64,000 nucleotides of DNA from Hydrogenivirga caldilitoris (lineage in GTDB: Bacteria > Aquificota > Aquificia > Aquificales > Aquificaceae): NCBI RefSeq assembly GCF_003664005.1, contig NZ_RCCJ01000001.1:868001-932000 (forward strand), read 5' to 3'. The position numbers and the translations under genes were made by a program. The notes under the pieces are model-generated. The model searched no databases. It saw only the letters and a program-made list of their open reading frames with translations, and was not told the origin of the DNA. Positions 6,224-20,900 of this stretch are shown here, in pieces (positions within the stretch are counted from its first letter, which is position 1; every line of letters starts with the position of its first letter).

Positions 6224-7599
6224 GTTTCAACTCCACACGGATGATTAAGAACAGACAGAACTGAGAAATGTGGTGAACGCTGTTACAACGTCGTTTCAAC
6301 TCCACACGGATAATTAAGAACTCATGCAAATAATCCCAATATGTCAAATATTTCTATAGTTTCAACTCCATACGGATGATTAAGAACTGATTTTCACAGA
6401 ATTCGCAAAATGCTTGAAGCCGCATGTTTCAACTCCACACGGATAATTAAGAACAGCTACTCATTTCAGAGTGAGGAATGGGAAGTGGAAGAGTTTCAAC
6501 TCCACACGGATAATTAAGAACTGCCTTGCGCCCCGTTTTCTCGCAAGCTATAAGCGGTTTCAACTCCACACGGATAATTAAGAACCAAATAATATGGCGG
6601 TTTTTTCTAAAACCGCTAATAGTTTCAACTCCACACGGATAATTAAGAACAAGAGTCTATCACTAGCAGCGAGGAAATCAAAACCCTGGTTTCAACTCCA
6701 CACGGATAATTAAGAACAAAATAAAAGAGCCAACGGCGGGCGGGCTTGCGAGCCGTAGTTTCAACTCCACACGGATAATTAAGAACCTCTTAAAGCGAAT
6801 GTCGTCTAAGCCTTCCACTCCCGAGTTTCAACTCCACACGGATAATTAAGAACGATATAACCTTAGAAACCAAAGAAATAGCCGATGCAATTAGTTTCAA
6901 CTCCACACGGATAATTAAGAACATACAGTTAGCTTGTTATTTCATAGGCTATTCATATAGTTTCAACTCCACACGGATAATTAAGAACTGCCTTGCGCCC
7001 CGTTTTCTCGCAAGCTATAAGCGGTTTCAACTCCACACGGATAATTAAGAACCAAATAATATGGCGGTTTTTTCTAAAACCGCTAATAGTTTCAACTCCA
7101 CACGGATAATTAAGAACAAGAGTCTATCACTAGCAGCGAGGAAATCAAAACCCTGGTTTCAACTCCACACGGATAATTAAGAACAAAATAAAAGAGCCAA
7201 CGGCGGGCGGGCTTGCGAGCCGTAGTTTCAACTCCACACGGATAATTAAGAACCTCTTAAAGCGAATGTCGTCTAAGCCTTCCACTCCCGAGTTTCAACT
7301 CCACACGGATAATTAAGAACGACATTTAGGACTTGATATATTTCTCATTACTCAGGATGTTTCAACTCCACACGGATAATTAAGAACTATAACGTTTATG
7401 ATTTGTATAAGTTATATAATTCCAACTCCGTGAAAGGGTTTCAACTCCACACGGATAATTAAGAACCCTCTTTATGTTTACCTTCCCCTATCAAGGCTAA
7501 GGTGTTTCAACTCCACACGGATAATTAAGAACCGGTGGCGAACAAGCAGGTCAATTTATAAATCCGAGCGGTTTCAACTCCACACGGATAATTAAGAAC
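6224..7599 (-). CRISPR. CRISPR array 1 (21 repeats, 20 spacers)
   Basis: Twenty-one copies of a 29-bp repeat (plus strand begins GTTTCAACTCCACACGGATA and ends ATTAAGAAC), first at 6224 and last at 7571. Spacers are 35-50 bp, mostly 35-40. The leader is on the right and the degenerate repeats (6224, 6359) are on the left, so the array is transcribed on the minus strand. The RNA repeat then ends in GUUGAAAC, a typical 8-nt crRNA 5' handle. Spacers at 6522-6824 recur in order at 6989-7291, offset exactly 467 bp: five spacers are duplicated, with two others between. The spacer at 7388-7437 is 50 bp and contains a repeat-like stretch. Confidence 0.99.
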
Positions 7600-7890
7600 C
7601 CTCAAACGGGGTGTTACAAAATTAAACTATTATCAATAACTTACGCAAAGGAGAGTGCTCTAAAATGAAGTTAATTTCCGGAAATCTTCAGTGAAGTAAA
7701 TTGCTCAAAAATTTACCACCTTTAAACCTTTGAAAAACAATCACTTTAGAAACCCATCATCAAAACATCAAAACATTTAGGCATTTTGATGATTCAATTA
7801 AAACCGCACTCCCCTTACTTTTGAGAGCCTCATACTCCCTATTCACTTGTCAAGGAGCCGGAGGGCTACTTAAAGCCCTCTCCAAGATTA
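7600..7890 (-). promoter_or_regulatory. Leader of CRISPR array 1
   Basis: This sequence borders the intact-repeat end of array 1 and is nearly identical over ~280 bp to the leader at 20615-20900. It contains two tandem CATCAAAA boxes (7758-7765, 7766-7773) and an inverted TTTTGATG (7784-7791), a conserved TTGACA on the minus strand (7848-7853), and a hairpin (7861-7867 with 7874-7880). No gene is seen here. It should hold the array promoter and the adaptation signals. Confidence 0.85.
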
Positions 7891-7908: not shown

Positions 7909-7927
7909 TATGCAAGGGGTATAATTT
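7909..7927 (+). promoter_or_regulatory. Promoter of the type III-B/Calp operon (leaderless)
   Basis: TATGCAA is followed by GGGGTATAATTT; the TATAAT at 7920-7925 lies 8 bases before the GTG at 7934, so the transcript should be leaderless or nearly so. A closely matching motif (TATGCAA, CGGTACAATTT) stands at 20934-20951 before the RHH gene, also just outside a leader. No convincing -35 box is seen. Confidence 0.55.
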
Positions 7928-7933
7928 ATCTCC

Positions 7934-8362
7934 GTGAGGGGGTTTGAGGAGTTATACAAAGAACTTATAACTAAGGAGGGACATAAATTTCTGGGGTTTT
8001 TCAGGTCGGACGAGCTTCGCTTTCTGGAGGAACTTTTGAGTACCGACCTCGGGGTATCGGTAAGGGAGGTAAAGGGAAGACAGCCTAGAAGCGCGCGACC
8101 TTTTATAGGCTGGTTTGATGGGGAAATTCTGAACCTGTGTTTTTTAACCAGAAATAAAAGGAATTTGAGTGTAGATATAAAAAACTGCAAGAGAGTGGAT
8201 AAAAAGTGTAATTGGATAAGGGTGTTCGGATATGTTCTCTTTGACCATCTTAAGAAGGGATACTTCCGATATACGTTGAAAGCCGTTAAACCTGAATACG
8301 TTTTATGTGGGAGGTGTGATGACCTTGAATTCCTGGAGAAACTGAAGGTTTTTGAGATATGA
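7934..8362 (+). CDS. Unknown first gene of the III-B/Calp operon (142 aa)
   Basis: A 142-aa protein of no recognised family. It starts at GTG 7934, the only start near the promoter. The N-terminal half is helical and acidic (about residues 1-40), the middle has strands around RPFIGWFDGEILNLCFL, and the C-terminal part has a CGRC pair among six cysteines. Its stop overlaps the sigma-like gene by ATGA, so the two are translationally coupled. Position as first gene, upstream of the sigma factor, inhibitor and protease, suggests a role in the same signalling cascade or as an extra regulator of it. That role is inference only. Confidence 0.8.
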   Translation: MRGFEELYKELITKEGHKFLGFFRSDELRFLEELLSTDLGVSVREVKGRQPRSARPFIGWFDGEILNLCFLTRNKRNLSVDIKNCKRVDKKCNWIRVFGYVLFDHLKKGYFRYTLKAVKPEYVLCGRCDDLEFLEKLKVFEI

Positions 8363-9027
8363 AAGAGCTTATCTTATCTTTCTTACAGGGCAGGGAAGAT
8401 TTAAAGACGAGAAACTTCTTTATAAAGGAAATAAGACAGCTTGCGGTCAGGTCGGGGCTTGAGGAAATATTAAGAAGGCGTATAGGTGATGATTACGCTG
8501 AGGAGATTCTTTCGGTTCTCAGATTCAAGTTACTCAAGATGTCGGGCAGTATTGCAAAGAAGGGTTTTATAAGCACAGCTTATCTGAGAAAAGTTATCTA
8601 CTCCTGCATAATAGATACTCTAAACGGTGAGTTTAGCGCCCAGATGTTAAGTATGGAGGAGCTGAATTACGAAAATCAGGAAGGTGATGTGGTAAGTTTT
8701 GAGGAAAACATTGAAGTTGAAGAGGATAAAGACCTGAAGATAAACGCCCAGGACCTGTTCGGTGCGATTATGAATATCCTTAAAGAGGAAGACATTAAAG
8801 TCATGTGCTACTACTTCTGCAAAGAACTTTACTCAGAGGAGATAGAGTTAGAGGGGCTTACAAAGACGAATCTTTACAAGAGATGGGAGAGGCTAAAGAA
8901 GAGACTTGCGCAGAAATTACCCTATGTGCCCACCAAGGAAGAGTTCCGGGAGTTTGCCGAGAGATTCCTGTCAGAGGTATGTGAAAGTAAGGGTTATATT
9001 ACAGAAAGAGGAAAAGACCATGAGTGA
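8359..9027 (+). CDS. CalpS-like ECF-type sigma factor
   Basis: A 222-aa protein with sigma-70-like layout. Residues about 50-100 resemble region 2 (AYLRKVIYSCIIDTLNG, as in the helix binding the -10 element and core RNAP). After an acidic linker (about 105-135), residues about 135-185 resemble region 4, with a helix-turn-helix around LYSEEIELEGLTKTNLYKRW. It overlaps the next gene by 8 bases, and that gene and the one after match CalpT and CalpL. In Sulfurihydrogenibium, CalpS is a sigma factor held inactive by CalpT and freed after CalpL cleaves CalpT. The identification rests on architecture plus this context. Confidence 0.75.
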   Translation: MKELILSFLQGREDLKTRNFFIKEIRQLAVRSGLEEILRRRIGDDYAEEILSVLRFKLLKMSGSIAKKGFISTAYLRKVIYSCIIDTLNGEFSAQMLSMEELNYENQEGDVVSFEENIEVEEDKDLKINAQDLFGAIMNILKEEDIKVMCYYFCKELYSEEIELEGLTKTNLYKRWERLKKRLAQKLPYVPTKEEFREFAERFLSEVCESKGYITERGKDHE

Positions 9028-9808
9028 ACTACAGGAGAATCTCTACAGGGTTTACGAAAAGAGCCTCGGAAAAGATTTACTTGAGGTAAAGGAAGAGGAG
9101 AAAGTGCCGCCGGAGGAGGGACAGGTCAGGCTCTTTTTTATGACTCCCCCTGAGTTCATACTTGTCTTGAAAAAAGAAGGAGACCTCAATGTCATAGTTC
9201 CGCTTACAAGTTATATCCAACTCGCAATTACCAATATATATCCCCCGCTCATAAAGTGGAAAGGTTTCCGTTTAGTCCCCCTTCCCTTCTGGGTTTACGC
9301 AAATGAAAAGATTATTCAAAAGTACTCTGTTCCGGTTTTTAAACTCAGTAACCTTGAAAAAATCCGTGAGTATGTAAAAAGTGCACGCACTAAAGGGATA
9401 GGAAAATGGCGTGAAAAGTTCATAAAAAAAGTTGCAGAAAGGTATAAAGATTTAAATCTTTCAAGTCTTATCTACGAAGTTATGAAAGCGGAAGAGGAGA
9501 GAAAAGCTTTAGTAATTGAATTTCCTGCAGCCCTTAAGGAGAGGTTTGAGTCAAGGGAGGAGATCCTGCTCGCCGCTCAGCCTCAGAACTATCTGAAGGG
9601 AAGGGACTGGCTCGGTGTTGTAGAAAACGGGGTTCTTTTCCTTTACCTACCTGAGGAGTATTCAGGAAAGAGAATCAGAATCTCTTTAGGGGAGGAGGTA
9701 ATTTATGAAGGGGAAGCTACCGCCTTAATAAAGATAGAAAATCTTCCGGAATTACCTTCTTATGGTTTCTTGGAGGAGGAGTTAAATGTTCAGGTTCTCG
9801 GAGATTGA
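9020..9808 (+). CDS. CalpT-like sigma-factor inhibitor
   Basis: A 262-aa protein with start ATG 9020 inside the end of the sigma-like gene. It has an acidic N-terminus (about 1-35), a hydrophobic strand-rich core (about 36-110), a basic helical stretch (about 112-165), then a small-residue segment LLAAQ at 183-187 and a separate strand-rich C-terminal domain of about 75 residues. Known CalpT is cut by CalpL into large N-terminal and ~10-kDa C-terminal pieces, and a cut near 183-187 would give that split here. The site is my inference. Sequence similarity alone would not name it; the place between sigma factor and Lon-SAVED protease does. Confidence 0.7.
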   Translation: MSELQENLYRVYEKSLGKDLLEVKEEEKVPPEEGQVRLFFMTPPEFILVLKKEGDLNVIVPLTSYIQLAITNIYPPLIKWKGFRLVPLPFWVYANEKIIQKYSVPVFKLSNLEKIREYVKSARTKGIGKWREKFIKKVAERYKDLNLSSLIYEVMKAEEERKALVIEFPAALKERFESREEILLAAQPQNYLKGRDWLGVVENGVLFLYLPEEYSGKRIRISLGEEVIYEGEATALIKIENLPELPSYGFLEEELNVQVLGD

Positions 9809-11219
9809 AGAAGAGCATCTGAAGGGTCTTCTGAGCGCGGGGAAGTTAGATGAGTTTCTTGATGACCTCTTTCTTCAGTTCTGGGAGCTCAGACCTTCGG
9901 TGCAGTACGAGCTTATCAATTACATAAAATCCAGAAAGAAGTATCCGAGCCTTAAAGCCTTGCAGGAAACCTTCCGCATCACTCAGGAAGAGGCACGGGC
10001 GTTTTTAAAGAATCCATACATGGAGTTCTACGTTCCCGTCGTTGGGAAAGAAAGCAAGATGGTGAGGGGGCTTGCGGTGAAGGGGTTAAAGGAAGTAATA
10101 ACCAATCAGGATCACCTGAAAAGTTCAATGGACACTATAAGGAAGTTTATCGGAGAAGGTCTTGCCCTTTTCTTTGATGATTTCTTTACCGGTGAGAGTT
10201 ATATGCTCCCGGCGGCTGTCAGCCTGCTGGTTGAAAACCTCCCTTTGGATGTGGTCTTTACCGGTAAGATAGATGAAGAGGGGAACGTTTACGAGGTTAA
10301 CGGTATCCCCAAAAAGAGAGAGCTTGCGGAGAGCCTTGGGCTGAGACTCATAGAACCCGGTTTTATAGATAACGTGAGAACCCTAAAGGAATGGTACGAT
10401 GCGGAAAACTACGATGTTCCTCTGTTTATCACAAAGACAACGGAAAACTACGAAGGCGAGCTTAAAAACTTCTACTCAAGCCTGACGTTTTTGGATGTGG
10501 AGAAGAAGATAGAGATGTTAGAGCTTCTCAGCGGAGTGCCCAAGGAAAAGCTCGTCCTAATCACAGGTCAAATCCCGCCGGAAGAAACAGCATGGTTCAG
10601 TGTTATCCACCGCTTCTTTACCACAATAAAAGAAATAGAAAAAGCTCTGGGGGGTAATGAAACTCTACACATGGGAATTAATGGACCTACCGCTTTAGCC
10701 TTCTCGCTGGGTGTGATCTTCGGCAGTCAGAAGCCCTTTGTGTTCTATCACTTTCAGGATGATAAATACCATCCGATAAAAGTCTCTAAGGTTAGAGAGC
10801 TCAAAGAGAGGGTTAGCGAGTACAGAACTATAAACTACAGCATAGAAGGGGAGGGAAAGGAGCTTGCGGTTATTCTTGCCTCTGCCCATCACGAACCTGT
10901 GGCGAGCGTAAAGAAGTTTATGAAAGATAAAGATGCTACGCTCCTCATAGTAAGACACAGCAAATCGGGGAACATTCCCGTAGATGAGATGAAAGAGGTA
11001 GCCAAAGAGACAGCAAGCCTGATACAGGACCTGAGAGCTACGAAGGATTACACCAGATTTCATTTCTTCTTTGCCTGTCCGGTGCCAGTTGCCTTTATGC
11101 TCGGTGTGGCTTTCGGATACTACAGTTCAGGATGTGTCTATCAGCATGCAGAAACGCAGGGCTACATAAAGGTGGTAGAATTTGATAGAATCAGAAAAAT
11201 AAGGGAGGAGGGAACTTGA
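9786..11219 (+). CDS. CalpL-like Lon-SAVED protease activated by cyclic oligoadenylate
   Basis: A 477-aa protein. The N-terminal ~80 residues are helical. Residues about 85-200 are a Lon-type protease domain with a Ser-Lys dyad: Ser138 in TGESYMLPAA and Lys176 in VNGIPKKRELAESLG, which align with the GPSAG and GGLKEK motifs of Lon. Residues about 255-477 match a SAVED domain (glycine-rich INGPTALAFSLGVIFG and CPVPVAFMLGVAFGYY repeats), which binds cyclic oligoadenylate. No AAA+ module is present. In the known system cA4 binding to SAVED oligomerises CalpL and switches on cleavage of CalpT. The SAVED domain there is also a ring nuclease. Lies between calpT and cas6. Confidence 0.85.
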   Translation: MFRFSEIEEEHLKGLLSAGKLDEFLDDLFLQFWELRPSVQYELINYIKSRKKYPSLKALQETFRITQEEARAFLKNPYMEFYVPVVGKESKMVRGLAVKGLKEVITNQDHLKSSMDTIRKFIGEGLALFFDDFFTGESYMLPAAVSLLVENLPLDVVFTGKIDEEGNVYEVNGIPKKRELAESLGLRLIEPGFIDNVRTLKEWYDAENYDVPLFITKTTENYEGELKNFYSSLTFLDVEKKIEMLELLSGVPKEKLVLITGQIPPEETAWFSVIHRFFTTIKEIEKALGGNETLHMGINGPTALAFSLGVIFGSQKPFVFYHFQDDKYHPIKVSKVRELKERVSEYRTINYSIEGEGKELAVILASAHHEPVASVKKFMKDKDATLLIVRHSKSGNIPVDEMKEVAKETASLIQDLRATKDYTRFHFFFACPVPVAFMLGVAFGYYSSGCVYQHAETQGYIKVVEFDRIRKIREEGT

Positions 11220-11950
11220 GGTTCCTCATCAGCCTTTCCAACCTCAACCCAGAACCCGCACACATAAGGCTTGACTACAGGGGAAGGTTCATATCCCTTA
11301 TGAAGAGAGTGTTCGGCACGGGAGAGTTCTCACAGGAAAAACCGAGACCTTACACCTTTGCAGTTTACTTGGGAAAGGATGCAAAGATTATAGACGGACA
11401 CTTTACGGGAATAAAGAACATAAAGCTGAGGTTTTCTACCGGGGATTCGGTGGTAGGTGTTAAGTTTTACAACGGCATACTGAGATTGAAAAAGGAGGAC
11501 TACATACATAACATAGGCACGGGAAGGTTCAGGATAGAGCTTATAAAGCCCGAAAAGGAAAAGCCTATCACGGGCATATTTAAAACCCTATCTCCCGTGG
11601 TTGTAGAGCGTATAGGGTTCAACGACTCAAAGAATCCGAAGGAGAGGTATACAATTCCCTCAGAACCAAACTTTGAAGAATCCCTGCTGGAGAACTTAAT
11701 AAGAAGATACAGGACAATTAAAGGCAGGGAACCGAGTATTAACTCCTTCAGATTTGAGTCTGTAAAGATAAGGGAAGAAGTTATAAGGCACTACGGGGGA
11801 GTGGTCAGGGGGTTTATCGGAAGTTTCAGGATTGTGTCAGATTCGGAGGAACTCCTCCGTTTTATATATCTCTATGGACTTGGACTCAGAACCGGTCAGG
11901 GCTTCGGCTATCTGGAGGTGGAGGATGGAAAAACTAACCTTCGAGCTTGA
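11216..11950 (+). CDS. cas6: CRISPR endoribonuclease Cas6
   Basis: A 244-aa protein starting at TTG 11216, overlapping the CalpL stop. The C-terminus has the glycine-rich Cas6 signature GLGLRTGQGFGYLEV and the N-terminal half forms a ferredoxin-like RAMP domain. Cas6 cuts pre-crRNA inside each repeat, leaving the 8-nt 5' handle. It is the only cas6 in the window and both arrays share one repeat, so it very likely serves both the III-B and I-B complexes. The type I-B operon has no cas6 of its own, which supports this. Confidence 0.88.
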   Translation: MRFLISLSNLNPEPAHIRLDYRGRFISLMKRVFGTGEFSQEKPRPYTFAVYLGKDAKIIDGHFTGIKNIKLRFSTGDSVVGVKFYNGILRLKKEDYIHNIGTGRFRIELIKPEKEKPITGIFKTLSPVVVERIGFNDSKNPKERYTIPSEPNFEESLLENLIRRYRTIKGREPSINSFRFESVKIREEVIRHYGGVVRGFIGSFRIVSDSEELLRFIYLYGLGLRTGQGFGYLEVEDGKTNLRA

Positions 11951-13046
11951 GTTTATAACTCCCGCTTTTATAGGAGGAGCTTTTCCAAAAGAAGCAGAGT
12001 TGAAACCAGCCAGCTTTATAGGACTCTTAAGATGGTGGTGGAGAGCGTTAAGGTGTGAAGAAGATACTGAAAAACTCTACACGGAAGAAGCAAAAATCTT
12101 CGGAGGACATTTTGAGGACGGAGCTATTGCCAGTAGAGTAACACTTAGAATAATAAAAGACAATGACAATTTAAAGATAATAGAGAATAAAACCTTGAAA
12201 GATTACGCAGGACTGAATTACTTTTACGACAAGCATAAGAGAACGCTTTCCGGAAAAGATTCGGGCATTGGTTATCTTCTGTATTCCACCATGTTACCTA
12301 ATAGGGAAAGGAGTTTTATAACCGAGGGTTCCAAGTTCAAGCTGATATTACTGGGAGATAGTGAAGCTATTAAACACTATGTAGCAAGTCTTTGGTGCTT
12401 GGTTTTTCTTGGCGGAATAGGGACAAGAGCAAGAAGAGGCGGGGGAAATATGAACTGTTTAAGTGTTGAACCTGAATTTAGAGAACTGAGTTTTCAACCA
12501 GAACCCCAAGACCCAGTAGGCTGGATGGAAGGAAATTTAATACAAGCCAAGAAAATAGTAAATGGGGGATTCTCAGAGAAAGAACTGGAGTATTCCAATC
12601 TGTGCCCATCTATAAAAATTGCGATAAGTAAAACATCTTTTAAGGATTACAAAGAAGCTCTCAACGAAATAGGGATATTGTTCAAGCAATACAGAGAAAA
12701 GAATAAACATCGTATATTTGATATGGGATATTTTGGGCTACCAATAAGACATTCAAATAACAAATTTTTGACTGCGGACGCAGATAAGTATTTTAGACGT
12801 TCTTCTCCATTAATCCTAAAGGTTCTAAAGATTGGAAGAAGTTATAAATGGATGGTTGTAAAACTAAACGGGAAATTTCTTCCTGATGGAACTGAGCTAA
12901 CCCTTATAACTCCACCGAAAAGGAAAGGAGAAAAACCAATAATACATAAGGGAAAATCAATAAATCAAAAAGTAGCCGGTAGAATGCTGGAAGAATTCTT
13001 CGATAGTATAAGACACCAAGCCCAAATCAAGGAGGTCTCCCTATGA
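11925..13046 (+). CDS. cmr1: Type III-B RAMP protein Cmr1 (Cas7 family)
   Basis: A 373-aa protein. ATG 11925 follows a GGAGGTGGAGG ribosome-binding site and sits inside the end of cas6. The N-terminus LTFELEFITPAFIGGA followed by ELKPASFIGLLRWWWRA is the hallmark of Cmr1, and IGTRARRGGGNM is the glycine-rich loop of the second RAMP domain. Cmr1 caps the 3' end of the crRNA in the Cmr complex and helps target-RNA binding. Its stop overlaps the cmr2 start by four bases. Confidence 0.93.
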   Translation: MEKLTFELEFITPAFIGGAFPKEAELKPASFIGLLRWWWRALRCEEDTEKLYTEEAKIFGGHFEDGAIASRVTLRIIKDNDNLKIIENKTLKDYAGLNYFYDKHKRTLSGKDSGIGYLLYSTMLPNRERSFITEGSKFKLILLGDSEAIKHYVASLWCLVFLGGIGTRARRGGGNMNCLSVEPEFRELSFQPEPQDPVGWMEGNLIQAKKIVNGGFSEKELEYSNLCPSIKIAISKTSFKDYKEALNEIGILFKQYREKNKHRIFDMGYFGLPIRHSNNKFLTADADKYFRRSSPLILKVLKIGRSYKWMVVKLNGKFLPDGTELTLITPPKRKGEKPIIHKGKSINQKVAGRMLEEFFDSIRHQAQIKEVSL

Positions 13047-14845
13047 AACTCCTAATCTTCACTTTCTCACCCGTTCAGGGATTTATAGAAAAATCAAGGA
13101 AGCTGAGGGATTTCTTTAACTCCAGCTACATACTCTCTTACCTTACCGAGAAACTCGTTGAAGAGATGGAGAAAGATTCCCGCTTTGAGGTTATATATCC
13201 CCAGAAACCGAAAAATCAGTTTCAAAAGCTAATCGCTAACTACCCTAACAGGATAGTGGCTAAGATTAAAGGGGAGGTAGGCGAAAACCTCTGTGAAGAC
13301 TTAAAGAAAAAGTTTTCAGAAATATGGAAGGATATATACACATCCGTTGCAGACAAGTATCTTAACCTTGATGACAATGTCAAAGAAACCTTTGAGATTC
13401 ATAACAAATATTACTTTCAGTGTTTTTGCCACATTCAGGAGCAAGTGAACGAACAAAAGTGGTTGGAAGTGCTAAAGCTTACTTCCAATAATACGGGACA
13501 GAAGGATGATTACGGCTTTACCTACGATCTTGCGGAAAGGATGCTGGGGGCAAAAAAGACCTTCAGACCCTATTATGGAAGATATCAGAACGAGCAGGTA
13601 GATGGATGCATCCTGTGTGGTGAAAGACCGGCACTTAATTTAAAGTTGGAAAAACTTAAGGAAAATATAGGAGAAAAAAACTGGAAGTATCATCTGGACG
13701 ACAGCGAAAGGTTGTGTGGAGTTTGTCTTACAAAGAGGTTTTTCCACTTATACCTGAAGGAAGAGAAAGAGAAAGAAAAAGAAAAAATAAGAGAACTCCT
13801 GCACTTTAATAGCACAAGGCACTTTGCTTGGGCTCCGCTGTTAGATTACCTAGAAAATGAAAAATACGAAAACAAGGAGTACAGCCGAGAGCTAAAAGAG
13901 GTTCTTAAAGAGATACTAAAAACCGATGAAAGCCTGAAACTGAAAAACATAGACGAGATAGATCCACAGGAGGTGGAAAGAGTCAGTAGCGAAAAATGTA
14001 GAGAAAAGGGGAAAGAAAGTCTGTGCAACGAACTAAAAGAACTGACTAAAGCAATTAAAAACCCTTACTTTGCGATACTTATGGCGGACGGGGATGAGAT
14101 GGGAAAGTGGCTGGGTATAGGGCAGGAAAAAAGGGGTAAAGAGCTTACGGAAGACTTTCATAAAACTTTTTCTCTGGCTCTTACTGGGTTTGCTCAAAAG
14201 GTGGCAGAACTTGAAGATGGAATCTGGATAAAGTTCGTTTATCTCGGGGGGGATGACGTTCTGGCGGTTATGCATCCCTCAAAGGCTCTCCAGCTTGCGG
14301 AACTTTTGAATAATAACTTCAGATGCACTCTCAATGAGAAGCTTACAGATATAAAAGGAGAACCCACAATAAGCGCGGGAGTTGTTATAGCTCATGAGAA
14401 GGAAAACCTAACCTTCGTTCTTGAAAATCTCAGGCGTGCGGAAAAGAGGGCAAAGAAGGAAGGGAGGGACAGACTGTGCGTTAGCGTAATACCTCACAAC
14501 GGCTCTCCGGTGGAGCTGGTTTTAAGGTGGGGTGAGGTGTATAAACTCAAAAGGCTTATAAACCACTTTAAGAGCGGGAAGCTCTCCTCAAGGGTCCCCT
14601 ACTCTCTCGGAAAAGAGGTGGAAATGCTTACTGAGATGGAGTATGCGGATAATTTGAAGGAAATCGCCTTCAGCTTAATAAAGAGGGTTTTAAGAAGGCA
14701 GAGCAACCTGAAAGATAGCGAGCTGGAGGAGCTTGAAAACGATGTAAAGAGCACTCTTTGCTCCGCAGGAGATTTAAAAATCGGAATACAAACCCTTCTA
14801 AATATGTTTTACATAGCAAGATTTTTAGCCGGGCTGGAGGTATAG
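13043..14845 (+). CDS. cmr2: Cas10 (Cmr2), cyclase-competent, without HD nuclease domain
   Basis: A 600-aa large subunit of the Cmr complex. The N-terminus (FTFSPVQGFIEKSRKLRDFF) is the Cmr2 signature. A zinc-binding set C189-x2-C192 and C225-x2-C228 follows, then palm motifs MADGDEMGKWLG and LGGDDVLAV with GGDD at residues 402-405. GGDD makes cyclic oligoadenylates from ATP when target RNA is bound. The usual N-terminal HD DNase region is absent, which explains the short length (Cmr2 is commonly 800 aa or more). The complex should signal, through CalpL and the CARF membrane protein, but not cut DNA by itself. Confidence 0.95.
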   Translation: MKLLIFTFSPVQGFIEKSRKLRDFFNSSYILSYLTEKLVEEMEKDSRFEVIYPQKPKNQFQKLIANYPNRIVAKIKGEVGENLCEDLKKKFSEIWKDIYTSVADKYLNLDDNVKETFEIHNKYYFQCFCHIQEQVNEQKWLEVLKLTSNNTGQKDDYGFTYDLAERMLGAKKTFRPYYGRYQNEQVDGCILCGERPALNLKLEKLKENIGEKNWKYHLDDSERLCGVCLTKRFFHLYLKEEKEKEKEKIRELLHFNSTRHFAWAPLLDYLENEKYENKEYSRELKEVLKEILKTDESLKLKNIDEIDPQEVERVSSEKCREKGKESLCNELKELTKAIKNPYFAILMADGDEMGKWLGIGQEKRGKELTEDFHKTFSLALTGFAQKVAELEDGIWIKFVYLGGDDVLAVMHPSKALQLAELLNNNFRCTLNEKLTDIKGEPTISAGVVIAHEKENLTFVLENLRRAEKRAKKEGRDRLCVSVIPHNGSPVELVLRWGEVYKLKRLINHFKSGKLSSRVPYSLGKEVEMLTEMEYADNLKEIAFSLIKRVLRRQSNLKDSELEELENDVKSTLCSAGDLKIGIQTLLNMFYIARFLAGLEV

Positions 14846-14863
14846 AGAGTGGAGAGGGAAGAG

Positions 14864-15877
14864 ATGAAGGTATACATACTTAAACCTTACGACGTTTTAA
14901 GTTTTGGAAGTTTAAAAAACTTTTCCGCAGGAGAGGTTCGCCTCCAGAAGAGCGTTTTTCCTCCTCCAATTATTAGGTTCTTCCACATATTTGAAAGAGT
15001 TTTGGGCGTTTTCCTTTACAGAGAGAAGGGCGAAGAAAAAGAGCTCTTCCTGCCCCTGCCTGCGGACTGCCTTACAAAACGAAAGGGAGACGGAGCACAG
15101 AGGGTAAAAATCGCCCCTCCGGAAAGTCCCCCTCTGATAACCGGAGACATAGAAGCTTACGAAACTGCAAGTGGTTTTATATCGCTTATGGACTTTCTCC
15201 AGAATTACGAAAAAGGCTCCGGAGATTTTACGACCTACCCGCCGGAGGAGTTCTTTGGAACCGAGAGAAGGATAGGCATATGGCTGGAGAAATCCTTCAG
15301 AAATGTAAAGAATGTTAAGAGGGAAGGCGAAGAAGAAAAGGAGGGTCTTCTTTACTCCAGGGATTTCATAAGGCTAAAGGAAGGGGTAAGAATAGCGGTA
15401 TTAGGAAAGGTGCATAAAGACGTTTCCGACAGAGAAATTTTCGGACTGGGCGGAGAGAAAAAGATGGGTCTTCTTGAGAAAACCTTAGATGCTGACACAG
15501 CTTTAGAGAAGGAAATAGAGATAGAGAAGGATACAATATACAAGTTTTACTGTCTTACCCACCTTTATGTAAAGGATGGCATACAAAGAAGTAAGACCTT
15601 AACTATAGATGGTCTGAACTTTGAAGTTGTGTGGCTCTTTAATGCAGGCGTGGAATATGTGTCCGGCTATAAAAAATCTTCTCAGGAAATATCAGGGCAA
15701 AAACCCTTTCTGGAGATGCTAAAGCCCGGTAGTGTGATAGTGCTAAAACCAAAAAGTGAAGGAAAACTTAAGAAACTGTGTCAGATTTTTACGGAAATAC
15801 CCGTTAATGGTAATGTTGGAGAAAAATTTTTAAGCAGGGGATGGAATTCTGGAATTTTAACGGAGGTGAAGGGATGA
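14864..15877 (+). CDS. cmr3: Type III-B RAMP protein Cmr3 (Cas5 family)
   Basis: A 337-aa protein beginning MKVYILKPYDVLSFGSLKNF; the 'L-x-P-x-D-x-L-x-F-G' opening is typical of Cmr3. ATG 14864 has a GGAGAGGGAAGAG ribosome-binding site and is preferred over GTG 14849. The C-terminus has GLGGEKKMGLLEK and the glycine-rich ending FLSRGWNSGIL. In the complex Cmr3 binds the crRNA 5' handle next to Cas10 and helps decide self from non-self. Its stop overlaps cmr4 by ATGA. Confidence 0.9.
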   Translation: MKVYILKPYDVLSFGSLKNFSAGEVRLQKSVFPPPIIRFFHIFERVLGVFLYREKGEEKELFLPLPADCLTKRKGDGAQRVKIAPPESPPLITGDIEAYETASGFISLMDFLQNYEKGSGDFTTYPPEEFFGTERRIGIWLEKSFRNVKNVKREGEEEKEGLLYSRDFIRLKEGVRIAVLGKVHKDVSDREIFGLGGEKKMGLLEKTLDADTALEKEIEIEKDTIYKFYCLTHLYVKDGIQRSKTLTIDGLNFEVVWLFNAGVEYVSGYKKSSQEISGQKPFLEMLKPGSVIVLKPKSEGKLKKLCQIFTEIPVNGNVGEKFLSRGWNSGILTEVKG

Positions 15878-16755
15878 GAAGAGAAACTTACCTTATCAAA
15901 GTGCTAACACCCCTCCATGTGGGAGCAGGTCAGGGACTTTCCCATATTGACCTTCCGATAGTGAGAGAGGTGCACACGGGCTTTCCCTTTGTCCCCGGAA
16001 GTGCCATAAAAGGATGCCTTAGAGAATATCAAATTAAAAAGCTTGCGGAAAAAATTAGTCCTCCAGAGCTTGATAAGGCATTACAGGAGGGTAAGAAGCC
16101 TCAGAATATAACAGAGGAAGAGTTTGAGCGTCTCGTAAAAATCTTCGGAACCGCAGGGGAAGCGGTAGAAAACGGAACAGGGGGAGCGGGTAAGGTCTTT
16201 TTCACAGACGCTAAAATACTCTTTTTCCCAGTAAAAAGTCTAAAAGGCATCTTTCAGCTGATTACCTGCCCTTATGTCATAAACAGGTATCTGGAAGACA
16301 TTGGGGAAAACTTACGCTTTGATAGGAATCTGTCAGAAAGTGAAGCACTGGTGTATTCAATAAAGGATTCTTCAGTAGAGGGCAAGATACTCCTTGAGGA
16401 GTTTGTTTTTGAAGCAAAAGAATATGAAGAGTTCAAGAGAGTTATAAATTTACTCCCCTTAGAGGACTATCAGAAAAATAGGGTTGTGTGCATAAACGAC
16501 AGTATCTTTTCCGATATGGTTCAAACCTACACCGAGGTACAGACCCATATAAAGATAGACCCGAAAACCGGGACGGCAAGTGGAGGTGCCCTATGGATAG
16601 AAGAATACCTGCCTGCGGAGAGCGTGCTTTACTTTAGCCTGTTCTTTGAAGAAAAAGTAGATTTTGAAGTCCATGAAGATGTTCTTCACCTCGGAGGGGA
16701 CGTAACCACTGGCAAGGGTTACGTAAAAATCAGGAGGGTTGAAAATGAGAAGTAA
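15874..16755 (+). CDS. cmr4: Type III-B backbone RAMP protein Cmr4 (Cas7 family)
   Basis: A 293-aa protein with start MRRETYLIKVLTPLHVGAGQG, then VREVHTGFPFVPGSAIKGCLREY, both Cmr4 signatures, and a C-terminal glycine loop LHLGGDVTTGKGYVKI. Cmr4 forms the filament along the crRNA, and its conserved Asp, in the thumb region of each subunit, cuts bound target RNA at 6-nt steps. ATG 15874 is used because it overlaps the cmr3 stop by four bases and has GGAGG just upstream. Confidence 0.95.
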   Translation: MRRETYLIKVLTPLHVGAGQGLSHIDLPIVREVHTGFPFVPGSAIKGCLREYQIKKLAEKISPPELDKALQEGKKPQNITEEEFERLVKIFGTAGEAVENGTGGAGKVFFTDAKILFFPVKSLKGIFQLITCPYVINRYLEDIGENLRFDRNLSESEALVYSIKDSSVEGKILLEEFVFEAKEYEEFKRVINLLPLEDYQKNRVVCINDSIFSDMVQTYTEVQTHIKIDPKTGTASGGALWIEEYLPAESVLYFSLFFEEKVDFEVHEDVLHLGGDVTTGKGYVKIRRVENEK

Positions 16756-17122
16756 GGTTCAGGAAATAGCGGGTTTTGCCTACAGGTGTATCAGCGAGGT
16801 GAAGGGAAAGGAGATGGAGAGTCAGTACTCCTCTTATGTGCGCAAGCTACCCTCCATGATTACCCACAACGGTATTTTGACTACTGTAACCTTTGTAAAT
16901 GCAAAAGCCCGTGAAAACAAGGCATGGGCAATAATTAAGAAACACGTAGAAGATTATTTAAAAGAGATGGAAAAGGAATCTACAAACGTGGAACTTGTTA
17001 AGTTCTTTGCGGAGCTGGAACTTTCCCAGTACAGGCTCTACACTAAGAAACTCCTTTTCTTTACCCAGTGGCTTAAAAGAATAGCGGAAGGCGAATTAAA
17101 ATACGAGGAGAAACAAGAATGA
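16745..17122 (+). CDS. cmr5: Type III-B small subunit Cmr5 (Cas11)
   Basis: A 125-aa all-helical protein (MRSKVQEIAGFAYRCISEV) with the Cmr5 features of conserved Tyr and Lys in the first helices, the YVRKLPSMITHNG loop and FFAELELSQYRLYTKKLLFFTQWLKR. Cmr5 forms the inner filament beside the target RNA. ATG 16745 is preferred over TTG 16739. Overlaps cmr4 by 11 bases and cmr6 by four. Confidence 0.93.
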   Translation: MRSKVQEIAGFAYRCISEVKGKEMESQYSSYVRKLPSMITHNGILTTVTFVNAKARENKAWAIIKKHVEDYLKEMEKESTNVELVKFFAELELSQYRLYTKKLLFFTQWLKRIAEGELKYEEKQE

Positions 17123-18018
17123 GCGGAAAAACTTCTGCAACCATAAAGGAATTGCTTGCCAAGGCGAAGGGTTCTAACCCTGCCCTTCTCTTTAACAAAT
17201 TACTTGCTCACAAACTTTCGCACAACGGAGAAGAGATAAAGAAGGTTGAGTTTCTGAAAGAATTTACAGCACTCATCGCCGAAAACTTCTCAGAGCACTT
17301 AAACCTTTTAAAGAAGATAGTTGACTCACTTCCCTGCTCAAAAACCTTTAAAGTCAGGACAGGTTACAGGCTTGCCATAGGGCTGGGCAATCCTTCCTTA
17401 ATAGAAAACGGCTTTCTCTTCCATCATACCTACGGCATTCCTTACATACCGGGGGAAACCCTTAAAGGACTTGCAAGGAGCGTTTTTCTTATTTCCGCAT
17501 ACGAAAGCATTAAGGACAATTTAAATTCCCTTTCTATTTCTGATTTTGAAAAAAACTTGGTCTCGGAAGGAGAGAACGATGTAAAGAAAACGCTTAACTC
17601 CCATCCTGTGAAGGTTGTGCTTGAAGGAACGCAAATAGAAAAACCTTATGATTTCTTTGTAAAGGTCTTCGGGACTCAAAGGAAGAGGGGAGAGGTTGTA
17701 TTCTTTGATGCTTATCCTGAAGACTTCAATAAAAATTGCTTTGAAATAGACATAATGAACCCCCACTACCAGAAGTATTACACGGAAAAAGGGAAGGAGC
17801 CTCCCGCAGACTGGTATAATCCCGTGCCTATACATTTTCTTACTTTAAAGGAGGGGCTTGTTTTCGTGGTGTGTTTAGGTGAAGCGTCTCTTGACGAAGG
17901 ACTGGAGGATAAGGAGTGGAAACTGATAGAAACGCTCTTGAAGGTAGGACTTGAGAACTTCGGAGTGGGAGCCAAGAAGAGGAAGGGTTATGGGTGGTTT
18001 GAAATACAGAGCAAATGA
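17119..18018 (+). CDS. cmr6: Type III-B RAMP protein Cmr6 (Cas7 family)
   Basis: A 299-aa protein. The central block VRTGYRLAIGLGNPSLIENGFLFHHTYGIPYIPGETLKGLARS is the Cmr6 signature, and the C-terminus has VGLENFGVGAKKRKGYGWFEI, the glycine-rich RAMP loop. Cmr6 lies at the 3' end of the crRNA beside Cmr1. It completes a full Cmr1-6 set, with every gene overlapping or nearly touching the next. Its stop overlaps the next ATG by ATGA. Confidence 0.92.
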   Translation: MSGKTSATIKELLAKAKGSNPALLFNKLLAHKLSHNGEEIKKVEFLKEFTALIAENFSEHLNLLKKIVDSLPCSKTFKVRTGYRLAIGLGNPSLIENGFLFHHTYGIPYIPGETLKGLARSVFLISAYESIKDNLNSLSISDFEKNLVSEGENDVKKTLNSHPVKVVLEGTQIEKPYDFFVKVFGTQRKRGEVVFFDAYPEDFNKNCFEIDIMNPHYQKYYTEKGKEPPADWYNPVPIHFLTLKEGLVFVVCLGEASLDEGLEDKEWKLIETLLKVGLENFGVGAKKRKGYGWFEIQSK

Positions 18019-19034
18019 TTTTTAGAAGCACGGGTATGAAAGGGTTTAAGTTTAATTTGCAAAATACAGTATTACCATTCTATGGAATTCTTGCAACGTT
18101 TTATATCCTGCTGATAGATAGTAGCTTAGTAAAATTGTCTCAGAATAATATATTGATTCATGTCATTCTATTTGTCGCAATTCCCTTGTTAATACTTTCA
18201 AACTTGTTCCTTTTTAAGATTTTCTACAGACCAGAATTTGACCTTAAATACCTTATACGCTCAGCTCTTGCAGGTTCTTTTCCGAGCGTTCTTACCTTCT
18301 TCTTTGTTTTATTTTTCGCAATCTTCACTTCCTGGATTGCTGACTTTCTTAAAGAAAATAATTATTACCAAGCTATTGGAACTTCTGTTTTCACATTCGG
18401 TTTAATATTTGCCTTTGCCCTTAGCATACCGCATGGAAGGCTCGGTAAAACAGGAGAAAGACAGCCCAAGAAAGTCTTGATATGTGCTCTTTCAAAACCA
18501 GGGTTAATAGGAAGAAACGCACAACAAAAAAGTGAAGATGAGGTTTTTGAAGAGATGAAAAGACTTCTTGCTAATGGAGATAAAGAAAGGATTTTAGGAC
18601 TGGATCATACATGGGCTCCTTTCCTTGAGTTATATCTTTTTCACAAAGAGAAACTTGAGAAATGGTATATTTTGATTAGTAAAGAGGTTTATAAGTCAAA
18701 AGATAAGTTTATAGAAATACTCGGAGAAGAAGCAAAAGAAATCGTTCATTTTAAACCTGAATCGGAAGGAATAGATTTTAATAATTACGAGGAGATAGTA
18801 GGGGTTCTTACGGAGATACTAAAGGAGATAAAGCGTTCCGGTTATGATGACGAGGATATTTCAGTTTACATAAGCGGTGGAACTTCTGCAATTACGCTTG
18901 CCTTAACACTCTTTGCAGTAAAAGACGGAAGGCAGGTGGAATATCTAACACAAAGTGAAAACGATAAAAAGATTATATCCATAAACATTAGTTTTGAAGA
19001 CCTGTATTCTTTTAGCCCAGAAGCGAGAGGTTAA
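18015..19034 (+). CDS. Four-helix membrane protein with CARF-like C-terminal domain
   Basis: A 339-aa protein. Four hydrophobic helices are visible at about 19-35, 46-70, 90-107 and 120-138. The soluble part from ~150 on is Rossmann-like: strand KVLICALS (153-160), then ISGGTSAITLALTLFAV (286-302), which is the glycine-Thr loop and helix typical of CARF ligand pockets, and VEYLTQ (308-313). No HEPN R-x4-6-H or nuclease motif is seen. CARF proteins bind cyclic oligoadenylate made by Cas10, so this is a candidate membrane effector, in the same broad class as Cam1, but with more membrane helices. Last gene of the operon, ATGA-coupled to cmr6; MKGFKF at 18036 is an alternative start. Confidence 0.82.
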   Translation: MIFRSTGMKGFKFNLQNTVLPFYGILATFYILLIDSSLVKLSQNNILIHVILFVAIPLLILSNLFLFKIFYRPEFDLKYLIRSALAGSFPSVLTFFFVLFFAIFTSWIADFLKENNYYQAIGTSVFTFGLIFAFALSIPHGRLGKTGERQPKKVLICALSKPGLIGRNAQQKSEDEVFEEMKRLLANGDKERILGLDHTWAPFLELYLFHKEKLEKWYILISKEVYKSKDKFIEILGEEAKEIVHFKPESEGIDFNNYEEIVGVLTEILKEIKRSGYDDEDISVYISGGTSAITLALTLFAVKDGRQVEYLTQSENDKKIISINISFEDLYSFSPEARG

Positions 19035-19050
19035 TTAATTTCAATTTTTT

Positions 19051-20614
19051 ATTTCAACTCCACTACTCCACACGGATGATTAAGAACGCTCATATACGGT
19101 CTCTCGGTATCAACAACCTCAAGGGTTTCAACTCCATACGGATGATTAGGAACTAATAGAGGTATTCTAAAACTTTTAAAGGAGGTGTTAGCAAGTTTCA
19201 ACTCCATACGGATGATTAAGAACATTAAAAGACGCCCAGCTTTTGTCCCCGTTCTTGATGCGTTTCAACTCCATACGGATAATTAAGAACCCGGTCAGAG
19301 AAAGATATAAAAGGACCGGCAACGTGTGTTTCAACTCCACACGGATAATTAAGAACCCGAACTTTAGCAAGACGGCAAAGCCATTTCAGGTTGTTTCAAC
19401 TCCACACGGATAATTAAGAACAAAACCCTTTGATATGCTTCTTCTCTTTGTAATTCTAAGTTTCAACTCCACACGGATAATTAAGAACTAGAAGAAGAGG
19501 AGGAGGGAACCTTGAAGGAATTCGAGTTTCAACTCCACACGGATAATTAAGAACATATTACCTCGTAAATACAGGGTTTTAATAAGTGCGTTTCAACTCC
19601 ACACGGATAATTAAGAACTTTCTACTAACCGAGTTTGCGGTGGCGGGTTCCTTCTGTTTCAACTCCACACGGATAATTAAGAACTATCTCTCTATCATCA
19701 GTCTTGAATATCTCATTAATGTTTCAACTCCACACGGATAATTAAGAACCTTTTATGGGTTCAGGAATGTTCTTAGCAAATTTTGAAAGTTTCAACTCCA
19801 CACGGATAATTAAGAACTATTTCAAAGGCTTTAAACAGCGTGATGAGGTTCTACGTTTCAACTCCACACGGATAATTAAGAACAGAGATAGTCAAGGCAA
19901 TAAAATTCCTATAATACTTGGTTTCAACTCCACACGGATAATTAAGAACACTCCTTTACTTTCCCGTATCACTTGCTAAGTTAGGTAGTTTCAACTCCAC
20001 ACGGATAATTAAGAACGGTCTGAATACACCCCCTATCCCAGCCTATTATAATAGGTTTCAACTCCACACGGATAATTAAGAACAAAAGACTACGACACGG
20101 TTCGGGTCATAGAAGAAGAGTTTCAACTCCACACGGATAATTAAGAACCACTCCTTCCAGTCTTCCTTTAAGTTTCTGCTGAATGCCTTGTTTCAACTCC
20201 ACACGGATAATTAAGAACCCTCTATACGGTTGATATGAACTACTGGATAATCGCTAAGTTTCAACTCCACACGGATAATTAAGAACCCCCTTATCCTCAA
20301 TTAACCCCTGCTCCTTGAGGTAGGTTTCAACTCCACACGGATAATTAAGAACACTTAAACTTTTTCATAGCTTCACCTCCCATTTAAGTTTCAACTCCAC
20401 ACGGATAATTAAGAACCACCTGCTCCCGTCTTCGCTTCTCAAGGAATATCAGTTTCAACTCCACACGGATAATTAAGAACCAGGAAAACAATTTTAGAAA
20501 CCTTAACACTTCAATTCTGTTTCAACTCCACACGGATAATTAAGAACCAAGCCTAAACCTGAGCCTAAACCTGCTGTTAAAACTGGTTTCAACTCCACAC
20601 GGATAATTAAGAAC
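19051..20614 (-). CRISPR. CRISPR array 2 (24 repeats, 23 spacers)
   Basis: Same 29-bp repeat as array 1, from a degenerate first copy at 19051-19087 to a perfect last copy at 20586-20614. Spacers are mostly 35-41 bp. The left (oldest) repeats vary: the first has an 8-bp insertion, and those at 19125, 19195 and 19262 read CCATACGG. Similar CATACGG/GATGATT variants sit at the old end of array 1, so the arrays share ancestry. The leader is on the right and transcription is on the minus strand. No spacer is shared with array 1 as far as I can see by eye. Confidence 0.99.
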
Positions 20615-20900
20615 CCTCAAACGGGGTGTTACAAAATTAAACTATTATCAATAACTTACGCAAAGGAGAGTGCTCTAAAATGAAGTTAATTTCCGGAAAT
20701 CTTCAGTGTCCGAAAGTGGTCAAAATTTTACCACCTTTAAACCTTTGAAAGCCAACCACTTCCGAAACCCTTCATCAAAACATCAAAACATTTAGGCATT
20801 TTGATGATTCAATTAAAACCGCACTCCCCTTACTTTTGAGAGCCTCATACTCCCTATTCACTTGTCAAGGAGCCGGAGGGCTATCTAAAACCCTCTCTTG
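20615..20900 (-). promoter_or_regulatory. Leader of CRISPR array 2
   Basis: Near-identical to leader 1 for about 280 bp from the repeat outward, with a diverged patch around 20708-20765. The same CATCAAAA boxes lie at 20773-20780 and 20781-20788 with inverted TTTTGATG at 20799-20806. At its outer end a GAGGG/CCCTC hairpin (20876-20880 with 20891-20895) is followed by a T-run on the plus strand, so it could also stop plus-strand transcription. Confidence 0.85.

What the first reader, a model, noticed from the sequence alone, without database searches (positions are those of the whole stretch)
7934..11219. A CalpL/CalpT/CalpS-type protease-sigma cascade inside a III-B operon
Four coupled genes precede cas6-cmr1-6: an unknown protein, a sigma-like protein, a CalpT-like inhibitor and a Lon-SAVED protease with a visible Ser138/Lys176 dyad. 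Known: in Sulfurihydrogenibium, cyclic oligoadenylate activates CalpL, which cuts CalpT and frees the sigma factor CalpS. Here the cascade is embedded in the Cmr operon and begins with a new first gene. The set of promoters the freed sigma factor turns on is the open question.
Basis: partly seen in the sequence, partly recalled or inferred. Interest (0 to 1): 0.92.

Follow-up and report, generated by a model that had tools for sequence, protein, structure and literature searches.

The report
CRISPR protease–sigma cascade with fourth gene
This heat-loving bacterium carries a known kind of CRISPR alarm in which a virus-triggered protease is expected to cut an inhibitor and free a transcription factor, and a small zinc-type protein of unknown function almost always travels with the three known parts, including in the strain where the system was first studied.

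Summary
Window 7934-11219 carries four overlapping genes, O1-CalpS-CalpT-CalpL, ahead of cas6-cmr1-6. CalpL matches solved CalpL over its whole length (E 4e-34), with Ser138/Lys177 (not Lys176) and the cA4/ring-nuclease residues conserved. CalpT matches the PADLOC CRISPR-T model and, as a family profile, the solved CalpT10 fragment. CalpS is the only ECF-type sigma gene an unbiased scan of this genome finds. The cascade is therefore a member of the known Calp family.

The two claimed novelties fail. The locus encoding the crystallised Sulfurihydrogenibium CalpL/CalpT has the same order, O1-S-T-L-cmr1-6-CARF, with its own O1. O1 is instead a regular fourth gene: it precedes CalpS in 32 of 34 Calp loci, has four conserved cysteines and an invariant Arg-Pro, and in the Hydrogenothermaceae is a PADLOC 'unknown function' type III accessory (C3a162). 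Its role is open. A weak MazF-like resemblance did not become a fold match.

The predicted cut leaves a C-terminal fragment of 76-77 residues and an AA/LAA-type end, and ClpX and ClpP are present. In passing: a second class of Aquificaceae CalpL ends in a Crn2/AcrIII-1-type ring nuclease domain.

The parts
7934..8362 (+). O1: 142-aa protein, conserved fourth gene of Calp operons; invariant Arg55-Pro56 and Cys85/Cys92/Cys125-Gly126-x-Cys128 (likely zinc site); function unknown
   Evidence: ORF; alignment of 26 homologues; upstream of CalpS in 32 of 34 loci; AF2 model pLDDT 86.5 without PDB or viral fold match
8359..9027 (+). CalpS-like sigma factor, 222 aa
   Evidence: TIGR02937 sigma70-ECF E 6.7e-6, 21 of 29 homologues match; one of only four sigma-70-type matches in the whole genome; PADLOC 'HTH' PDLC01153 E 4e-81
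9020..9808 (+). CalpT-like anti-sigma factor, 262 aa; predicted CalpL cut at or next to Ala186|Gln187, leaving a 76-77-aa CalpT10-like piece
   Evidence: PADLOC CRISPR-T E 4e-25; family profile matches solved CalpT10 8b0u_D E 7e-17; cut-site mapping
9786..11219 (+). CalpL: Lon-SAVED protease, 477 aa; Ser138/Lys177 dyad; His322, Arg337, His369 of the cA4/ring-nuclease sites
   Evidence: 7qda/8b0r/8b0u E 4e-34 full length; AcrIII-2 9r8s E 2e-47; SAVED E 7e-26; residue mapping
11216..11950 (+). cas6
   Evidence: TIGR01877 E 2e-34
11916..13046 (+). cmr1
   Evidence: TIGR01894 E 1e-13
13043..14845 (+). cmr2/cas10, GGDD cyclase motif at residue 402, no His-Asp dipeptide anywhere in the protein
   Evidence: TIGR02577 E 2e-71; motif scan
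14849..18018 (+). cmr3, cmr4, cmr5, cmr6 (closely packed genes)
   Evidence: NCBIfam for cmr3 and cmr6; cmr4 and cmr5 by position and conserved synteny in related loci
18015..19034 (+). membrane-CARF protein at the end of the operon, probable second cOA effector
   Evidence: PADLOC CARF_TM E 3e-21; at least three hydrophobic helices near the N terminus; weak Csm6-type CARF match
7920..7925 (+). TATAAT, housekeeping-type -10 element just ahead of O1
   Evidence: sequence; similar TATAAT/TAAAAT boxes ahead of O1 in many related loci

Best explanation
This is a member of the Calp family. Infection leads the Cmr complex to recognise foreign RNA, and its Cas10 (GGDD intact, no HD motif seen) makes cA4. 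cA4 joins CalpL molecules through their SAVED domains and switches on the Lon Ser138/Lys177 protease. CalpL cuts CalpT at the Ala-Ala motif near residue 186, releasing a C-terminal piece of 76-77 residues and leaving the N-terminal piece, still on CalpS, with an AA/LAA-type tail. ClpXP then plausibly removes that piece and frees CalpS, the genome's only ECF-type sigma factor, to redirect RNA polymerase. The ring-nuclease residues of CalpL suggest that it also shuts the signal off. O1 is a regular fourth component; the likeliest of several poorly constrained roles is a small zinc-stabilised partner of the CalpS/CalpT pair. Shown here: gene content, order, conserved residues, synteny. Inferred from the SsCalp literature: cA4 activation, cleavage, sigma release. 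Speculative: ClpXP step, O1 role. The confidence given is for the Calp cascade, not for the O1 role.
For: Full-length CalpL match E 4e-34 and SAVED E 7e-26. Ser/Lys and His345/Arg361/His392 equivalents conserved, residues shown to matter in SsCalpL (PMC11417357). CalpT family matches solved CalpT10 and PADLOC CRISPR-T. The cut column keeps small residues at or within about two positions in 30 of 31 homologues (by eye); Ala at P1 in 20 of 31 as aligned. CalpS matches sigma families and is found by an unbiased genome scan. clpX and clpP present. The same four-gene order lies in the founding Sulfurihydrogenibium locus.
Against: The sigma match is below the NCBIfam cut-off, hhalign to a housekeeping-rich sigma profile gives only 20% probability, and a Foldseek search of the CalpS model gives no significant match. 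The exact cut bond is uncertain by one residue. No interaction or complex was modelled. O1 has no functional evidence beyond linkage and conservation.
Confidence: 0.9

Rival explanations
1. The cascade is as above, but O1 is the real effector: a MazF/PemK-like RNase held in check by CalpT/CalpS and let loose when CalpT is cut, so the output is RNA cleavage as well as transcription.
For: O1 keeps an invariant Arg-Pro and a downstream Thr/Ser in the register of the MazF active-site pair. Hydrogenothermaceae O1 versus MazF gives hhalign p 0.0045, better than ten control families. The CalpT23 fragment is reported to resemble MazF (PMC9704534).
Against: hhalign probability only 8%; no PemK Pfam match in any of 26 members; no MazF among the top 50 PDB fold matches of the O1 model; no antitoxin-like partner seen.
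Confidence: 0.12
2. The freed N-terminal CalpT fragment is itself the toxic product and CalpS is only its chaperone, as first proposed for CRISPR-T.
For: The early CRISPR-T reading described by the 2022 review (PMC9704534); CalpS sequence similarity to sigma factors is weak.
Against: Later papers on the same system describe CalpT as an anti-sigma factor and CalpS as an ECF sigma factor (PMC11417357, PMC12751052); 21 of 29 CalpS homologues match sigma70-ECF.
Confidence: 0.08
3. O1 is a passenger: an unrelated small gene kept at the operon start for translation or regulation of calpS only.
For: The CalpL/T/S tripartite complex is described without O1 (PMC11417357); O1 is missing in two loci that keep S, T and L (L092, L105).
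Against: Present in 32 of 34 loci over three Aquificota families, Thermodesulfobacteria and Thermosipho, with conserved cysteines and Arg-Pro; no O1 match at E 0.001 or better lies away from a Calp locus.
Confidence: 0.2

Closest known systems
CalpL/CalpT/CalpS of Sulfurihydrogenibium sp. YO3AOP1 (PDB 7qda, 8b0r, 8b0u)
   Same: Lon-SAVED protease with Ser/Lys dyad and ring-nuclease residues, CalpT with the cut motif and a 76-77-aa C-terminal piece, ECF-type sigma, gene order O1-S-T-L directly ahead of cmr1-6 and a CARF-membrane gene
   Different: About 25% identity in CalpL; cas6 sits between calpL and cmr1 in the window; divergent CalpS and CalpT
CcaCalpL (Lon-SAVED) of Candidatus Cloacimonas acidaminovorans (read of in PMC12751052, PMC11417357)
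   Same: Lon-SAVED protease and ring nuclease activated by cA4 filaments
   Different: Not compared residue by residue here; the entry 9eyi matched at E 8e-9 may be this protein, but its record name does not say so
AcrIII-2 viral SAVED ring nuclease (PDB 9r8s)
   Same: Its SAVED domain scores higher against this CalpL than SsCalpL does (E 2e-47)
   Different: A lone viral anti-CRISPR domain with no Lon part
Csx29/Csx30/CASP-sigma of type III-E (PMC10028731, title and abstract seen only)
   Same: CRISPR-triggered protease linked to a sigma factor and inhibitor (general knowledge)
   Different: TPR-CHAT protease activated by target RNA in a Cas7-11 complex, no cA4; analogous, not a relative
PADLOC C3a162 (PDLC01080), type III accessory of unknown function
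   Same: Matches the Sulfurihydrogenibium O1 (E 4e-58) and other Hydrogenothermaceae O1 (L082, L083, L088, L089)
   Different: The model misses the window O1 and the other Aquificaceae O1 tested; no function assigned

Membership tests
CalpL (Lon-SAVED) | Full-length similarity to solved CalpL | tested here: met
   7qda E 4e-34 over residues 12-463; PADLOC CRISPR-Lon E 1e-123
CalpL (Lon-SAVED) | Ser/Lys protease dyad | tested here: met
   Ser138 and Lys177 invariant in 31 homologues, equivalent to Ser152/Lys193
CalpL (Lon-SAVED) | SAVED ring-nuclease and oligomerisation residues (SsCalpL His345, Arg361, His392) | tested here: met
   His322, Arg337, His369; roles from PMC11417357
CalpL (Lon-SAVED) | Binds cA4, oligomerises, becomes a protease | not testable with these tools
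   needs protein
CalpT | Similarity to SsCalpT / CRISPR-T and a CalpT10 C-terminal domain | tested here: met
   PADLOC CRISPR-T E 4e-25; family profile to 8b0u_D E 7e-17; the single sequence alone found no PDB match
CalpT | CalpL cut site at the same place | tested here: inconclusive
   AA motif at 185-186 aligns with SsCalpT A195|S196 within one residue, leaving 76-77 aa
CalpS / ECF sigma factor | Sigma-70 region 2 and region 4 similarity | tested here: met
   TIGR02937 E 6.7e-6 over 37-187, below the curated cut-off; 21 of 29 homologues match; unbiased genome scan
CalpS / ECF sigma factor | Predicted fold matches solved sigma factors | tested here: inconclusive
   pLDDT 77; no significant Foldseek match, a SigI1 complex ranks third at E 1.0
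O1 as MazF/PemK toxin family | Family profile match | tested here: not met
   No PemK_toxin match in 26 members; hhalign 3-8% probability
O1 as MazF/PemK toxin family | MazF fold | tested here: not met
   AF2 model pLDDT 86.5 shows no PDB match with E <= 0.001 and no MazF in the top 50
Type III-B operon | cmr1-6 with cyclase-competent Cas10 | tested here: met
   NCBIfam matches and conserved synteny, GGDD at residue 402

The most novel reading that the evidence does not exclude
Calp is a four-protein system and the published three-protein model lacks a part: O1, a four-cysteine zinc protein with a MazF-like motif, is needed in the cell for the CalpS response or for its safety, for example by pairing with the MazF-like half of CalpT or by assisting CalpS at promoters.
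Probability: 0.45. Interest if true: 0.65.

Novelty: new member of a known kind. Interest (0 to 1): 0.5.

Why it matters
What CalpS switches on, and whether three proteins are enough, are the open questions of the Calp pathway. This locus bears on both. In this genome an unbiased scan finds only three other sigma-70-type genes, none of ECF size or score, so a CalpS regulon should stand out cleanly. The conserved O1 gene, absent from the three-protein scheme in the papers read here, is a ready genetic test. The Ala-rich cut site, conserved across some 30 homologues, gives a family-wide argument for release by ClpXP.

Tried and rejected
A T-L gene fusion in L110 was dropped: it is a run of N in the contig. 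O1 as a MazF family member was tested by Pfam, profile-profile comparison and fold search and not accepted. O1 homology to CalpT by hhalign failed. Pfam and PHROGs profiles give nothing credible for O1, nor does BFVD. CalpS fold search against the PDB gave no significant match. A first genome-contig scan with single CalpL found nothing; the alignment query found 17 loci. Scans of viral contigs with O1 or CalpS alignments were not possible; with CalpL only one 41,208-bp viral contig carrying a lone SAVED match appeared, the size reported for the AcrIII-2 phage. Reading the ~150 bp ahead of the operon in about 30 loci showed housekeeping-like -10 boxes and no obvious ECF-type autoregulatory motif by eye; no formal motif search was run. 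Rouillon et al. 2023 and the 39-cas-families paper thought to be the source of the PADLOC accessory models are not in the library, so whether O1 was noted there is unknown.

Full report
What is there. Window 7934-11219 holds four overlapping + strand genes, here O1, S, T and L, followed without a break by cas6, cmr1-6 and a membrane-CARF gene. CRISPR arrays with the same repeat lie on both sides (6224-7599 and about 19059-20614), and the repeat reads in its usual GTTGAAAC-ending form on the minus strand. The overlaps (4, 8, 23 and 4 nt) suggest that the four proteins are translated as one coupled unit.

CalpL. The 477-aa protein matches the solved CalpL (7qda, 8b0r, 8b0u) from end to end at E 4e-34, and its SAVED domain matches the viral AcrIII-2 (9r8s) at E 2e-47. 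The protease pair is Ser138/Lys177: both are invariant in 31 homologues and align with SsCalpL Ser152/Lys193. The residues that PMC11417357 links to cA4 cleavage and oligomerisation (His345, Arg361, His392) are His322, Arg337 and His369 here.

CalpT. The 262-aa protein on its own matches no PDB chain, but matches PADLOC CRISPR-T at E 4e-25, and the profile of 31 homologues matches the solved CalpT10 fragment at E 7e-17. CalpT10 starts right after Ala195 of SsCalpT, which leaves 76 residues. The aligned place in the window is the AA motif at 185-186, leaving 77 or 76 residues. Small residues stand at or within about two residues of this column in 30 of 31 homologues (by eye), and in many Aquificaceae the sequence reads LAA or ALAA. 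Such an end on the N-terminal fragment resembles a ClpX-type tag (general knowledge), release through ClpXP has been suggested in print (PMC11417357), and the genome has clpX and clpP. The ClpXP step is inference.

CalpS. The 222-aa protein hits the sigma70-ECF model at E 6.7e-6 over residues 37-187, below that model's curated cut-off; 21 of 29 homologues hit it too. When the same model was run over the whole genome, four places matched: three strong ones in frames of 572, 310 and 236 aa, and this one. So no other ECF-type sigma gene is seen. The predicted structure is of middling confidence and found no significant fold match.

Not new in two respects. The locus L086 encodes the CalpL used for 7qda and a CalpT whose C-terminal 76 residues are the solved CalpT10, so it is the founding system. 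It reads O1-S-T-L-cmr1-6-CARF. Embedding in the Cmr operon and a gene ahead of CalpS are therefore features of the founding locus. Its O1 is known to PADLOC as C3a162, unknown function; the Hydrogenothermaceae O1 of L082, L083, L088 and L089 also match that model, while the window O1 and the Aquificaceae O1 tested do not. The window and Hydrogenothermaceae O1 are linked through an iterated profile, shared position and shared cysteines.

What is notable about O1. It precedes CalpS in 32 of 34 loci with readable upstream sequence (absent in L092 and L105), spanning three Aquificota families, Thermodesulfobacterium and Thermosipho. No match at E 0.001 or better lies elsewhere. Over 26 sequences Arg55, Pro56, Cys92, Cys125 and Gly126 are invariant, and Cys85 and Cys128 nearly so, which suggests a zinc site. 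It is doubled in L069 and L110. A weak MazF-like signal (RP..., then a strand ending in Thr/Ser; hhalign p 0.0045 for the Hydrogenothermaceae subset, better than ten controls) did not stand up as family or fold. Its role is open; the working guess is a partner of the CalpS/CalpT pair.

Mechanism, with status. Foreign RNA seen by Cmr and cA4 made by Cas10 (GGDD present): inferred from family knowledge. cA4 assembles and activates CalpL, which cuts CalpT and frees CalpS: shown in Sulfurihydrogenibium by others, inferred here from conserved residues. Shut-off by the CalpL ring nuclease: inferred. ClpXP clearance and the O1 role: speculative.

Verdict. A well-supported new member of the known Calp kind. 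The value lies in the conserved, functionally unassigned fourth gene and in a genome where CalpS has no ECF rival.

Noticed in passing
L090:339-2006, L091:6970-8640, L092:7752-9458, L093:3888-5600, L094:7735-9423, L096:2293-3972, L097:1679-3355: A second class of Aquificaceae CalpL (556-571 aa) keeps the Lon dyad but ends in a PF08960 (STIV B116-like, the Crn2/AcrIII-1 ring nuclease family) domain at E 2e-22 to 1e-18, with only a weak remnant of SAVED; it sits in S-T-L operons, with O1 where the upstream sequence is readable except L092. One member also matches PADLOC Csx16. A protease fused to its own off-switch; PMC12409355 mentions such a fusion only for Csx1.
   Followed up: partly
L066:909-2339, L067:2646-4076: Two CalpL homologues have Ser in place of the ring-nuclease His392 equivalent, suggesting slower signal shut-off.
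   Followed up: no
window 18015-19034: Membrane-CARF protein closes the operon and recurs in many Calp loci: a likely second cOA-triggered effector.
   Followed up: partly
window 6492-6791 and 6959-7258: A 300-nt block of CRISPR repeats and spacers is duplicated without any difference inside the first array.
   Followed up: no
window 7570-7869 and 20585-20884: The two CRISPR leader regions are 95% identical over 300 nt; the first lies between array and calp operon, so leader and operon promoters are probably divergent.
   Followed up: no
L069:6403-7337, L110:5159-6093: O1 is present as a tandem pair in two related loci.
   Followed up: no
G031:C1:785323-785967, G036:C3:64843-65481, G026:C1:457658-458301: In the six-frame scan some calpS matches contain stop codons or are split (G026 clearly in two frames), hinting at decay, sequencing errors or alignment past the frame end.
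   Followed up: no
L105, L107, L112: Calp operons also occur in records named Thermodesulfatator, Thermodesulfobacterium and Thermosipho; the Thermodesulfatator one lacks O1.
   Followed up: partly
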